In this document: one piece after another, positions 9,939 to 18,256 of the stretch | How positions within the stretch are numbered: position 1 is the first letter of the stretch | Layout of the letters: every line of letters starts with the position of its first letter | Virus record (IMG/VR): IMGVR_UViG_3300035681_000150 | Span: 1 to 20,901 of that record | Reading direction: 5' to 3' (one strand) | Source: a virus | DNA: 20,901 nt | Position numbers and translations under genes: made by a program | The notes under the pieces: model-generated | What the model was told of the DNA's origin: nothing | The model's database searches: none | The model's input: the letters and a program-made list of their open reading frames with translations, nothing else

Positions 9939-10579
9939 CACACAGCCTCCTGCGGCACAAACTGCAACAAGGTGAACGGGAGTGATACCGCCGTCTTCCT
10001 GTCTTCACGTGGGTAGATCAGTACTCGGTTCGCACCATCCAACATCATCGCGTTGACCACACCCTTCTCGATGCCTTCAAAGTCGTCGAACACAAAGATA
10101 GTCTGGTCATGAATGATCTTCGGGAAGTATTGGAAGTCCTCTTGCTGCAACCGACCGTCCAGATACAGCAAGTCCACGTTGACCTTCTTATCGGCCAAGT
10201 CCTTGAACATATCTGTCGATGATGTCTTCGGGTATTGATGGATATGAAACGGTAGGTTGAGCTTGATGTCGTTCGACACATCGCAGGTGTAGATATCTAC
10301 CTCTCCTTTGCAAGCTTCATACATCACGGTCGTCGATACACCGATAAACGTACCCACCTCGGCAATGACCTTTGGCTGAAAGAACTTCGCCAACTTGTAC
10401 AACTCAACCGCATCGTCATACGGGACTGACCCGGTATTGTAGTCTGCATCAGCACGCAGCTTCTGCTGATCCTCAACAATCTTCTCAATGACCTCGTACG
10501 GGTAGTCATCCACCCGCTCATCTACGATGCCCCAGAAGATGTTACTGAATCGTTGCCGTCCAATCTGTACCGGGTTCAT
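9938..10579 (-). CDS. Class I SAM-dependent methyltransferase
   Basis: A 213-aa protein with a Rossmann-type methyltransferase core: motif I VIAEVGTFIGVSTT (E74, G76, G80), acidic motif II YTCD (D100), then YLDGRLQQEDF (D141) and FVFDDFEGI (D165, D166). This order resembles the Methyltransf_24 group and related small-molecule or sugar-modifying enzymes, with acidic residues that could bind a metal. It sits upstream of the glycosyltransferases and is coupled to them by the micro-gene, so glycan methylation is a reasonable guess. The start ATG at 10579 overlaps the preceding stop (ATGA), with GAGGG upstream. Confidence 0.82.
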   Translation of the reverse strand: MNPVQIGRQRFSNIFWGIVDERVDDYPYEVIEKIVEDQQKLRADADYNTGSVPYDDAVELYKLAKFFQPKVIAEVGTFIGVSTTVMYEACKGEVDIYTCDVSNDIKLNLPFHIHQYPKTSSTDMFKDLADKKVNVDLLYLDGRLQQEDFQYFPKIIHDQTIFVFDDFEGIEKGVVNAMMLDGANRVLIYPREDRKTAVSLPFTLLQFVPQEAV

Positions 10580-11079
10580 ACACTTGCCCTCACTTCGTCC
10601 TTCTTACTCTCAACTGGTTGGAACTTGGTCTCGACCTTGGCTACAGCATCCCACACTTCGGACAACTCAATGAGAGTGTCGTACTTGCGGCGGCAGGCTC
10701 GTAGCTCAATGAGTGCGGTCTGAATCAGGTTCAACCGCAACGCCTCGTCGTTCATCACATCGTTGATGTGGCGGTAGCCGGGAAAACCCGACCCCGCCTT
10801 GCGATCCTCGATGAGAGAGACTAACGCTCGCACCGGAGGTTTCTGATCGTCAACTGGCTTGAGCACGAAGAGTCGAATGATGCGAGAGGCATAGTCGAGC
10901 CGTGCCTTCTCTGCCGCAGTCTTCTCATTCCACAATCCTTGCCGGTCGAAGTCTTCCCAGAGTGCCGAGTCCGGGTTCGCACGAGCGAAGTTGACGATGT
11001 GTTCCTGTTTGAGAAGCCCCCCGTGTGATACACGGAGGGTGTCCAGTTCTTCATTAATCCGATCACGCAGCGAGGACAT
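10576..11079 (-). CDS. Conserved phage protein, helical, unknown function
   Basis: A 167-aa, mostly alpha-helical protein (MSSLRDRINEELDTL, ALRLNLIQTALIELRACRRKY). The start ATG at 11079 has AGGAGAGG upstream and lies 17 nt inside the end of the RAMP-like gene. The centre (EDRKAGSGFPGYRHINDVMND) is a loop-like region with conserved-looking Gly, Pro and Asp. It resembles proteins I recall next to the same upstream gene in other phages, which suggests the two proteins act together. No enzyme motif seen. Confidence 0.78.
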   Translation of the reverse strand: MSSLRDRINEELDTLRVSHGGLLKQEHIVNFARANPDSALWEDFDRQGLWNEKTAAEKARLDYASRIIRLFVLKPVDDQKPPVRALVSLIEDRKAGSGFPGYRHINDVMNDEALRLNLIQTALIELRACRRKYDTLIELSEVWDAVAKVETKFQPVESKKDEVRASV

Positions 11080-11722
11080 CTGTCACCTCTCCTTGAATGT
11101 CAAACAAACCCCAACCCATGCCCGCAGAATTCTTCGAATCCGGTCGGCCTTCACCGATCCCGACTTGCTGACCTACGCGCATCATCAGGTTGATGATGTC
11201 ATTGTGCGAGAACATATCTGCGTCGTACCGCACACGCACCGTCATCTTCCATTGCTTCCACATCGGACGCACACGGATATCGACAGACCCGTTATCGTTT
11301 CTAGCATACGTCGTGTGACGGTTCGGCTCGCCATAGATGCGAACCAACGGAGTCTCATCATCAATGTCATACCCGTCCGCGAGTACGAACGCAGCGAGCT
11401 TTGCATGGGTCATCTTGTACCCGACCGTACGACAGGCCGAGACCATTGCGTTTCTGAATGCACCTGCTGGCACACCGATCCAACCCTCACGGGTCATGTG
11501 CATCGCGCCCATGTAGACCTCATCAAAATCCTTCGGGTCACGCTTCTTCTTACCCTTTGCTTGCGAACCTTCCTTCTGCGTCTGGATGATTTGGTTCCGC
11601 GCCTTCTGCGAGAACTTGTTCATCACCAACGGAGCCGCGCCCGCAATGTTGATCTCTGCAATCCGAAACTTCGGAGCCGGGATCTCTACCTTCTCTACCT
11701 TTGTACCTTCTTTCGTAGCCAC
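11063..11722 (-). CDS. Conserved phage protein with RAMP-like sequence features
   Basis: 219 aa from a GTG at 11722 with AGGAG 9-10 nt upstream. Seen: an N-terminal strand then APLVMNKFS (30-38), a Lys-rich loop (55-62), GVPAGAFRNAMVSACR (83-98) and a Gly-rich end GIGEGRPDSKNSAGMGWG (188-205). The order PLxMN, PAGxFRNAxxSA, then a Gly-rich SAGMGWG loop is similar to RAMP-superfamily (Cas7/Csm3-like) proteins, which bind RNA through a ferredoxin-like fold. That is my inference, not a demonstrated match. It lies directly downstream of the pentamer array and upstream of its probable partner at 10576-11079. Confidence 0.8.
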   Translation of the reverse strand: MATKEGTKVEKVEIPAPKFRIAEINIAGAAPLVMNKFSQKARNQIIQTQKEGSQAKGKKKRDPKDFDEVYMGAMHMTREGWIGVPAGAFRNAMVSACRTVGYKMTHAKLAAFVLADGYDIDDETPLVRIYGEPNRHTTYARNDNGSVDIRVRPMWKQWKMTVRVRYDADMFSHNDIINLMMRVGQQVGIGEGRPDSKNSAGMGWGLFDIQGEVTDVLAA

Positions 11723-11784: not shown

Positions 11785-11805
11785 TAAGTCCGATCCATAC
11801 CGGGA

Positions 11806-12487
11806 CTTACCAAACCGTGCCACACCTAGCGTTGCCTGCGATGCCTCACCTCGCTTCGCCTCACCTTGCCTGACCGCGCCGTGCCTGCGATGCAGAACCA
11901 CACCTTGCCAAACCGAGCCATACCTGCGATGCCTTACCAGACCTTGCCCGATCTGGCCTCACCTAACCTCGCCTGCGATGCCTTACTAAACCTAACCGCG
12001 CCACACCGTACCAAGCCGAGCCTGCGATGCCTAACCAGACGCTGCGGGAACATACCGCGCCTAGCCAAACCTGCCTTGCCTCTCGCCGCCTGACCAAACG
12101 ACCCTGCGCCTCGCCTCGCCTGCGTTGCCTTACCAAACCTAACCTCACCCCGCCATACCCAGCCTAACCATGCCTGCGTTGCCTTACCAAACCCAACCTC
12201 GCCACACCTATCCATGCCTGCCTTGCCTCTCGCCGCAGAGCCAAACCAGTACGCACCTCGCCTCGCCATGCCTGCGATACCAAACCGTGCCCATCCACAC
12301 CTCGCCATGCCTGCGATGCCCTACCTTACCCAGCGTTGCCGGATCGCGCCGCGCCCGACCTTGCGAGACCGTGCCTCGCCATGCCTGCGATACCAGACCA
12401 GACCGTACCTTGCCCAACCTTCCCGAGCCGTGCCTGCCATGCCTAGTCGAGCGCAACTGCGCGATACCCGACCGAGCCTGACCTGCC
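11806..12487. repeat. Phase-locked pentanucleotide array (NNRCC)n with 4-nt register markers
   Basis: On the plus strand CC recurs every 5 bp for about 680 bp. The base before CC is nearly always a purine and the first two bases are free, so the sense (minus) strand reads GGYNN repeats. At intervals a 4-mer, TGCG or TGCC, replaces a pentamer, usually as CCTGCGATGCC. These 4-mers start at 11837, 11886, 11925, 11974, 12023, 12072, 12121, 12175, 12219, 12273, 12312, 12386, 12435 and 12484. Spacings are 49, 39, 49, 49, 49, 49, 49, 54, 44, 54, 39, 74, 49 and 49 minus none repeated beyond the 13 intervals listed by the positions: every interval equals 5n+4. A 19-bp block containing CTCTCGCCGC recurs 147 bp apart (12071 and 12218), three 49-bp units. 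It begins directly after the DUF3310 stop codon. Open frames inside it are by-products of a stop-poor repeat. Confidence 0.93.
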
Positions 12488-12488
12488 A

Positions 12489-12791
12489 CTACGCCCGTTT
12501 TCTCCGGGCAATCTCCCTCTTCAAATAAAACTCTGCTTTCTCCAAGTCCTGAACCGGATCGACACCGACCTTCTTGCCCGCTCGAACAACGTACTTCACA
12601 ACGTTGAACAGGTACGCATTCTCAGTCAGCCCCTTCGCCTCTGCGAAGTCGATGAAATCAATTCCACCCGCTTTGTAATGCGGCGGGTTGTTCACAAGAT
12701 CAGCTTCCCGATCTTTAATTTTGTCGAGCGCAGCGAGCGTAGCTTTCATCTCCTGCACCGAATCTAAAAGTCTCGACGGCTTTCTACTCAT
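12489..12791 (-). CDS. DUF3310 family protein
   Basis: A 100-aa protein with the DUF3310 core: VNNPPHYKAGGIDFIDFAEAKG near residues 37-58, then YLFNVVKYVVRAGKK and ending in FYLKREIARRK. The family is common in phages and of uncertain activity (sometimes labelled nucleotide kinase-like). The ATG at 12791 is chosen over a TTG at 12797. AGGAG lies about 10 nt before the ATG, and the start falls inside the VRR-NUC gene's end (8-nt overlap). The pentamer array begins immediately after its stop. Confidence 0.85.
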   Translation of the reverse strand: MSRKPSRLLDSVQEMKATLAALDKIKDREADLVNNPPHYKAGGIDFIDFAEAKGLTENAYLFNVVKYVVRAGKKVGVDPVQDLEKAEFYLKREIARRKRA

Positions 12792-13068
12792 GTCCAAACA
12801 ACTCCTTTAGTTGATCCACGTTCGTCTCATCAATGACGAGGGCGAGTCCGCCCGCATCTCGAATCCTTTGCATCGCTGCTTCTTGCAGCGCGGTGGGCTT
12901 GTTCTTCCCTGCCTTACACTCAATGGCCGCGAACGCACCCTGATAACACACGAGAAAGTCCGGTGTACCACTCAACCCATACCCACCTGTCGCGGGCATC
13001 GCGTAGTAACAACCCATCTCGGTCAGGTACTTCTTGACCTTCTGTTTGACTTTGCCTTCTGGTGTCAT
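12784..13068 (-). CDS. VRR-NUC domain nuclease
   Basis: A 94-aa single-domain PD-(D/E)XK nuclease: an N-terminal helix (EGKVKQKVKKYLTEMGC), then GYGLSGTPDFLV (D37), AFAAIECKAG (E50, K52) and TALQEAAMQRI (Q62), the full VRR-NUC set. This family acts on branched or structured DNA and in phages is thought to resolve replication or recombination intermediates. The ATG at 13068 has only a weak SD. It lies 53 nt downstream of the 13122-13355 gene, separated by a terminator hairpin. It overlaps DUF3310, a pairing common in phages. Confidence 0.88.
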   Translation of the reverse strand: MTPEGKVKQKVKKYLTEMGCYYAMPATGGYGLSGTPDFLVCYQGAFAAIECKAGKNKPTALQEAAMQRIRDAGGLALVIDETNVDQLKELFGHE

Positions 13069-16673: not shown

Positions 16674-17573
16674 TTAGGCGGCTACGGCTAGCGTGGCGCG
16701 AGTCTCGCCCGTTTCGCTTGCTTGCATGATGTAGTCGCAAGCCTTTTGAGCTTCGCTCGCGGCGCGAATGATCGCCTTGCTATCGCTTTTCAATACTTTC
16801 AGCCATGAGGCGAGGTACTGAGCGTGATCGGGGCGGGGGTCATTCGTTATGCCTAGCTGAGCACATAAAAACGCCGCGCCCATTTCGGCGGCTAGTTCTT
16901 CGACGGCATAAGCTTCATCGCCGAACTTTTTGAACTTTGTAAAGCCCCGCGAAAGGCGCGACTCGTGTCCAGTCCAGTGAGTCAACTCATGTAGTGCTGT
17001 GCTGTAGTAGGCTTCCGTTGGCGAACTCGTCTCGGTTCCGATGAATGCGGCGCGCTCCGGTAAATAAATCTCGTCAGTCGAATGACGATAAAAGGCGCGG
17101 CTACCGGCATGGGTGACCTTCGCCCCCGTCGCTGTAATGACTTCGTCCGCCCGTGCTATCCGTTGCGTCAAGTCTTCGCGGGGTGCGGATGCTTCGCCCG
17201 TCTCGCCGTCTACCTGTTCGGCGTTGAAAAGATAAAAGGCGCGAGCGAACGGCGTCGCCTTAGTTTTCCCGGTAGCGTCTTCGTGCTCCGTGATGGTGTA
17301 GAAAATCCCGGCGGTAGCCTTTTCGCCCTTGCGGACTTGCGCCCCATTCGCCGCCCATTGTTTATATGTCGCCCATCGATTCGAAGCGTAGCCGTGTTGC
17401 ATACCGGCCACCCATAACGTGAGGATGTTCGAGCCGCGGTACTTCGCCCCGGTAATAGCGTTGCATGGGATATCGTTCGCCGTGCTCGCTCGATGCCACG
17501 GCATTCGGAACTCTCCCGCGCCTTGCTCGATTGCGTTGATGATGTTGGCCGTCACTGTTTCGTAGATGTTCAT
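16674..17573 (-). CDS. ardC: ArdC-like anti-restriction protein with zinc metallopeptidase motif
   Basis: A 299-aa protein with the two-domain ArdC layout. About 1-120: the ssDNA-binding N-terminal domain (MNIYETVTANIINAIEQG, MPWHR, YRGSNILTLW, WATYKQWAANGAQVRKGEK). About 140-299: the metallopeptidase domain with HELTHWTGH (HExxH, His195, Glu196, His199) and EELAAEMGAAFLC (226-238), the usual third zinc ligand region. Known members protect incoming DNA from restriction. The ATG at 17573 has GGA about 13 nt away in the shared GGAAAAAGCAT leader; upstream in-frame sequence overlaps the preceding gene and is rejected. Its place near the start of the leftward early operon fits expression soon after DNA entry. 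Confidence 0.9.
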   Translation of the reverse strand: MNIYETVTANIINAIEQGAGEFRMPWHRASTANDIPCNAITGAKYRGSNILTLWVAGMQHGYASNRWATYKQWAANGAQVRKGEKATAGIFYTITEHEDATGKTKATPFARAFYLFNAEQVDGETGEASAPREDLTQRIARADEVITATGAKVTHAGSRAFYRHSTDEIYLPERAAFIGTETSSPTEAYYSTALHELTHWTGHESRLSRGFTKFKKFGDEAYAVEELAAEMGAAFLCAQLGITNDPRPDHAQYLASWLKVLKSDSKAIIRAASEAQKACDYIMQASETGETRATLAVAA

Positions 17574-17604
17574 GGTTATGCTTTTTCCGTGTGGTGTGGA
17601 TTGG

Positions 17605-17697
17605 TTAGGCAATGGCCGCGAAAATGAAAAACAGCGGCGGGGCGGTGATCAGGAAAAGCCAGAAAAAAATCTCGGGGGCGTGGTTTCGCTTGCTCAT
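17605..17697 (-). CDS. Single-span membrane micro-protein, 30 aa
   Basis: ATG at 17697 with GAGGG 9 nt upstream. Residues 1-9 are polar and basic (MSKRNHAPE), and the rest is one continuous hydrophobic span (IFFWLFLITAPPLFFIFAAI). It starts 3 nt after the stop of the 57-aa membrane gene. Size and composition suit a small inner-membrane protein such as a superinfection or host-membrane modifier. A holin is less likely in an early operon. Confidence 0.62.
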   Translation of the reverse strand: MSKRNHAPEIFFWLFLITAPPLFFIFAAIA

Positions 17698-18201: not shown

Positions 18202-18256
18202 GGTGCGGCGAGGTAAGGCGTGGCCGGGTGAGGTTTTGCGGGGTTGGGTGTGGGTA
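18202..18256. repeat. Second pentamer array, GGYNN orientation on the plus strand
   Basis: Eleven consecutive 5-bp units in perfect phase: GGTGC GGCGA GGTAA GGCGT, GGCCG GGTGA GGTTT, one exception TGCGG, then GGTTG GGTGT GGGTA. Ten of eleven begin with GG, mostly followed by a pyrimidine. It is the same rule as the large array at 11.8-12.5 kb but with the G-rich strand on the opposite DNA strand. Confidence 0.75.

What the first reader, a model, noticed from the sequence alone, without database searches (positions are those of the whole stretch)
11806..12487. A 680-bp array locked to a 5-bp phase with quantised 5n+4 super-period
Seen: CC every 5 bp (NNRCC), the other positions variable, and a 4-nt unit (TGCG/TGCC) inserted at 14 positions. 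All 13 intervals between them are 39, 44, 49, 54 or 74 bp, each 5n+4, with 49 commonest. Keeping phase while sequence drifts suggests that spacing of CC/GG, not a fixed word, is selected. On the transcribed strand it is GGYNN repeated, which satisfies a two-tier G-quadruplex pattern with 3-nt loops; alternatively it is a regularly spaced protein-binding lattice or a slippage-generated spacer. I know no named element with this design.
Basis: partly seen in the sequence, partly recalled or inferred. Interest (0 to 1): 0.9.

Follow-up and report, generated by a model that had tools for sequence, protein, structure and literature searches.

The report
Phage VIPR guide-RNA array
The odd 5-base-phased stretch is an array of guide RNAs belonging to a phage VIPR system, a recently described CRISPR-related weapon in which a small Cas7-like protein reads two letters out of every five to find and silence rival DNA.

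Summary
On the minus strand, window 11787-12483 is about 129 GGYNN units interrupted by 13 four-base units (CGCA/GGCA); shuffles give nothing like it. It is a guide-RNA (vrRNA) array of a VIPR system, described in a 2026 preprint (PMC13142463).

The array lies just upstream, sense strand, of a 219-aa gene (11063-11722). Its product has a Cas7/Csm3-like fold, and its family profile matches the solved SUSP1 Vipr protein (E=7e-38).

The link holds both ways. About 80 of 97 viral array loci fetched by DNA pattern alone carry this gene; of 80 loci fetched by the protein alone, 77 have the array within 1.5 kb, all sense.

A second gene (10576-11079) marks arrays with four-base phase shifts: 21 of 21 with it, 11 of 34 without.

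The published 1-base-skip code works in this lineage: a guide of sister phages L134/L135 spells the tyrosine-integrase motif HGFRTTFRDWA (78 genomic sites against 8 for a control). Two window guides spell DEA(L/V)FxGDK, found in DUF5906 primase-helicases; this is only a candidate target.

Verdict: a new member of a known, very recent kind, not an unknown element.

The parts
11787..12483 (-). vrRNA (guide RNA) array: about 129 GGYNN units and 13 four-base units
12223..12272 (-). guide segment s5, NN = AT GA GA GC CT TT TC GG GA AA; read as NNx codons it gives (I/M)(D/E)(D/E)AL(F/L)SG(D/E)(N/K); candidate target DUF5906 primase-helicase
12076..12120 (-). guide segment s8, NN = GA GA GC GT TT CA GG GA AA; spells (D/E)(D/E)AV(F/L)(H/Q)G(D/E)(N/K), a variant of the same motif
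   Evidence: no exact site in IMG/VR
11063..11722 (-). vipr gene (phrog_4652), Cas7/RAMP-like protein, 219 aa
10576..11079 (-). gene B (phrog_15946), 167 aa, probable vap accessory gene, overlapping the end of vipr
18202..18256 (+). second short GGYNN run (11 units) in an intergenic stretch, candidate solo vrRNA
12489..12797 (-). DUF3310 gene whose stop codon lies 6 bp before the array; likely same transcription unit (inferred)

Best explanation
The region is the guide-RNA array of a phage VIPR system. It is probably transcribed leftwards with the DUF3310, vipr and B genes (inferred from strand and spacing). Each module of about 49 nt carries 7-14 GGYNN units and ends in a short semi-conserved tail, roughly GGYAW followed by CGCA or GGCA. 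The Cas7-like Vipr protein coats the RNA at one subunit per 5 nt, holding GGY and presenting NN (established for SUSP1 in the preprint, inferred here). The NN pairs read double-stranded DNA with one base skipped per pair, so one RNA unit corresponds to one codon whose third base is usually the skipped one. Binding represses genes of rival phages, prophages or satellites. The four-base unit breaks the 5-nt register and probably marks the boundary of each guide (inferred). Gene B, tied to arrays that have this unit, probably acts on or with it (inferred).
For: Family: the profile of the window protein's family matches PDB 36pp 'SUSP1 Vipr protein' with E=6.9e-38 and SUSP1 CDS 28474-29061 with E=6.7e-46. 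The AlphaFold2 model (pLDDT 92.9) matches Csm, Cmr and type VII Cas7-like subunits in the PDB (best E about 4e-6). Linkage: about 80 of 97 pattern-fetched array loci hold the gene, all but one in sense orientation, while no other sense family is in more than 7 loci. In reverse, 77 of 80 protein-fetched viral loci and 24 of 26 genome or named-phage loci have the array within 1.5 kb, all sense. Code: a guide of L134/L135 (Vipr 88-89% identical to the window's), read with 1-base skips, gives 78 sites in 65 of 399 Pseudomonadota genomes against 8 for the backwards control; most read HGFR(S/T)(S/T)FRDWA, and 6 of 7 sites inspected lie in integrase-type ORFs with the skipped base at codon position 3. 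Window guides s5 and s8 and the L134 version spell variants of DEAxFxGDK, present in DUF5906 primase-helicases. Published mechanism: PMC13142463.
Against: No transcript or binding data exist for this phage. No guide of the window itself has a statistically secure target: s3, s8 and the solo guide found nothing and s5 hits are near chance level, one of them in an HU-like protein. A local search of 2.2 Mb showed only a weak excess for skip 1, which coding periodicity could produce. Several units deviate from GGY. Many segments have 7-9 units, at or below the 9-16 reported in the preprint.
Confidence: 0.93

Rival explanations
1. A VIPR array that is decaying: vipr is kept but many guides are no longer functional.
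For: Non-GGY units (CGCTA, GTTCC, CGTCT, GATCC) are scattered in the array; most guides tested have no target in the collections.
Against: Phase is kept over about 700 bp; some deviating units (GTACT, TGCGG) are shared with L134, so they are old and tolerated; the only differences between the window and L133, and between L134 and L135, are C/T changes at the Y position; guide content turns over between window and L134, as expected of an active array.
Confidence: 0.05
2. A nucleic-acid structural element: GG tracts every 5 nt form two-tier G-quadruplexes or R-loops in the transcript or DNA, with no guide function.
For: GG tracts with 3-nt loops on the sense strand fit the pattern formally.
Against: Does not explain exclusive linkage to a Vipr homologue, the 4-nt units, or why a guide spells an 11-residue integrase motif. 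Folding of the array was not computed.
Confidence: 0.01
3. A neutral slippage-generated satellite or spacer.
For: Adjacent segments share sub-sequences (TRF finds two imperfect 39-bp repeats), so duplication does generate new modules.
Against: Phase is conserved while NN varies freely; the array is found next to vipr in hundreds of unrelated contigs.
Confidence: 0.01

Closest known systems
VIPR system of Escherichia phage SUSP1 (type II; PMC13142463, PDB 36pp)
   Same: Homologous Vipr protein, GGY/NN tandem units on the sense strand at the vipr locus, a small accessory gene directly behind vipr, phage-encoded; 1-base-skip decoding supported in sister phages.
   Different: One continuous array of 13-14 modules divided by 4-nt units instead of four separate RNAs of about 100 nt with a structured tail; the accessory protein profile does not match SUSP1 vap1.
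VIPR types with 'staggered arrays with overlapping vrRNAs' (PMC13142463, fig. S18)
   Same: Possibly the same architecture: dense arrays with closely packed guides.
Cas7/Csm3/Cmr4 RAMP proteins of class 1 CRISPR systems
   Same: Fold; by analogy, assembly along a guide RNA.
   Different: Single small protein, 5-nt periodic guide RNA, no repeat-spacer array, no adaptation genes.

Membership tests
VIPR system | Vipr protein (ancestral RAMP homologue) | tested here: met
   Profile match to PDB 36pp SUSP1 Vipr, E=6.9e-38; Cas7-like fold
VIPR system | Tandem GGY/NN units in non-coding sequence beside vipr | tested here: met
VIPR system | Mostly encoded by phages, archaeal viruses or prophages | tested here: met
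   The window is a virus record with phage-type genes
VIPR system | Accessory vap gene | tested here: inconclusive
VIPR system | vrRNA of 9-16 units with a defined 3' tail | tested here: inconclusive
   Segments of 7-14 units ending in semi-conserved GGYAW + SGCA; transcript ends unknown
VIPR system | Target read with a 1-base skip (xNN) | tested here: inconclusive
   Supported for one guide of sister phages L134/L135; window guides have only candidate matches
VIPR system | Vipr-vrRNA complex silences target DNA | not testable with these tools
   Needs expression and reporter assays
Class 1 CRISPR-Cas | Repeat-spacer array with a cas operon | tested here: not met
   No repeat-spacer structure; no Cas or defence family recognised for the genes scanned
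G-quadruplex element | Stable quadruplex formation by the GG tracts | not tested
   No quadruplex prediction or probing was done

The most novel reading that the evidence does not exclude
The four-base units are dedicated register-breaking boundary signals: one shortened unit (GGYN instead of GGYNN) ends one Vipr filament and starts the next, and the B protein family recognises or processes this boundary. That would be a distinct way of packing many guides into one continuous transcript, without CRISPR-type repeats, ribozymes or structured tails.
Probability: 0.4. Interest if true: 0.65.

Novelty: new member of a known kind. Interest (0 to 1): 0.5.

Why it matters
VIPR was described only in 2026. 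This locus independently re-derives it from raw sequence and adds testable points: an architecture with 13-14 modules in one array, a near-perfect association of four-base register shifts with one accessory gene family, guide turnover between close relatives, and decoded guides pointing at phage integrase and possibly phage primase-helicase. Vipr homologues with arrays in mycobacteriophages and Gordonia phages of laboratory strains make this class open to experiment.

Tried and rejected
Rfam and tRNA searches: nothing. blastn of the array against named phages: nothing, as expected for variable NN. Pfam, NCBIfam and PADLOC for the vipr protein: nothing; PHROG gives only an unknown-function family. 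Target search within 2.2 Mb of fetched loci with skips 0-3: only weak excess for skip 1, inconclusive. Exact IMG/VR scans for guides s3, s8, the L134 integrase guide and the solo guide: no exact hits. s3 in 150 genomes with up to 3 mismatches: none. I tested whether substitutions avoid NN in near-identical arrays: over 12 pairs they do not clearly (9 of 28 in NN, 11 expected), so the Y-only differences of the window pair are anecdotal. Structure of gene B: confident local helices but low pTM (0.54) and no PDB match. Coding function of the array was set aside: the 4-nt units break frame and GGTAA/GGTGA/GGTAG units carry stops.

Full report
What is there. On the minus strand, window 11787-12483 consists of about 129 pentamers GGYNN in unbroken phase, interrupted only by 13 tetramers, ten CGCA and three GGCA. 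The phase is far beyond chance: lag-5 autocorrelation of CC 0.57 against 0.00 +/- 0.04 in shuffles, and runs of six GG phases 13 times in the window against 0 in 100 shuffles. The 5n+4 intervals follow from strict phase plus 4-base insertions and should not be counted as a second observation. A second short run of 11 units lies on the plus strand at 18202-18256.

Related loci. Parsing showed arrays in 97 of these loci, the window included. One protein family, homologous to window 11063-11722, is present in about 80 of them, while no other sense-strand family is in more than 7. Arrays lie in sense orientation, often within 20 bp of a stop codon. The reverse test used protein sequence only: 77 of 80 viral loci had an array within 1.5 kb, 77 of 77 in sense; the three without are cut off shortly after the gene. 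Of 26 genome and named-phage loci, 24 had one.

Identity. No curated family covers the protein except an unknown-function PHROG. Its AlphaFold2 model (pLDDT 92.9) matches Cas7-like subunits of Csm, Cmr and type VII complexes. A literature search found PMC13142463, a preprint of April 2026 describing VIPR: a Vipr RAMP protein and vrRNAs of alternating GGY/NN that read DNA with a one-base skip and repress rival phages. The family profile matches the deposited structure 36pp, SUSP1 Vipr, with E=6.9e-38 and the SUSP1 gene itself. This settles membership.

Architecture. Gene B (10576-11079) directly follows vipr. Among pattern-fetched loci with enough flank, all 21 with B have arrays with at least two 4-base shifts, against 11 of 34 without B (Fisher p=1.6e-7). 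Related phages are not independent, so the p-value is optimistic, but the loci share few other genes. In arrays with NGCA-type units the commonest intervals are 49, 44 and 54. Arrays without B instead show no shifts, 1-base shifts (L044, L058, L083, L085) or long interspersed repeats (L011).

Turnover and code. L133, with an identical Vipr protein, has two C/T differences in 697 bp, both at Y positions; L134 and L135 (89% and 88% Vipr identity to the window) differ from each other by one C/T at Y, and share with the window chiefly the last segment and guide s5. Over 12 similar segment pairs from all loci, substitutions do not clearly avoid NN. Reading NN as the first two codon bases, the 15-unit guide of L134/L135 read in reverse spells HGFRTTFRDWA over its first 11 units. 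I recognised this motif by eye, then tested it: 78 sites with at most 3 mismatches of 22 in 399 Pseudomonadota genomes, 8 for the backwards pattern. Six of seven inspected sites are in ORFs with P4-type integrase context. Integrases are common, so this shows what the guide spells, not which integrase is the real target.

Window guides. s5, s8 and the L134 version of s5 spell DEA(L/V)Fx G(D/E)K variants; no other array does, and scrambled motifs give about none. Two of four exact IMG/VR matches to s5 fall in one conserved protein with DUF5906 and Prim-Pol domains, 'FLDEALFAGDK', and one genomic near-match reads DEAFFAGDK in a similar protein. The total number of hits is near chance, the motif was chosen after the fact, and one match is in an HU-like protein. 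I rate the primase-helicase target at about 0.5.

Most likely working. Shown here: array, phase, linkage, protein family and fold, B association, one decoded guide in sister phages. Inferred: co-transcription, Vipr filament on the RNA, boundary role of the 4-base unit, role of B, repression of rivals.

Noticed in passing
window 18202-18256 (+): Isolated run of 11 GGYNN-like units in a gene-poor stretch, on the opposite strand to the main array; candidate solo vrRNA. Its exact decoded 20-nt target was not found in IMG/VR.
   Followed up: partly
L011 640-1197 (-): GGYNN blocks separated by four copies of a conserved ~46-bp sequence (TTATTGCRAGGAATARGGCGGYTAA...CCGCCTTATRACGTGCAAT) with an inverted repeat; a different array architecture.
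   Followed up: no
L044, L058, L083, L085: Arrays whose phase shifts are 1 base instead of 4, without gene B.
   Followed up: no
L137 3526-3833 (+): Array in which GGYNN blocks alternate with repeated TTCTTGGCA/GGAG words.
   Followed up: no
L130 (Mycobacterium phage Gorge gp54): The annotated CDS 54 translates to a Vipr start followed by out-of-frame residues and then the B domain, suggesting a frameshift or annotation fusion of vipr and B; other cheoctoviruses keep a full-length Vipr match.
   Followed up: partly
L129 (Cyanophage Cy-LDV1): Closest named relative of the window's Vipr (53% identity) with two GGYNN arrays beside g34 and g33, both annotated hypothetical.
   Followed up: partly
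L261 (Rhodoplanes serenus plasmid NZ_LR026982.1): Vipr homologue, 57% identical, on a 54-kb plasmid that carries phage structural genes, probably a plasmid-prophage.
   Followed up: no
window 16674-17612 (-): Large ArdC-type protein with MPTase-PolyVal domain (anti-restriction factor).
   Followed up: no
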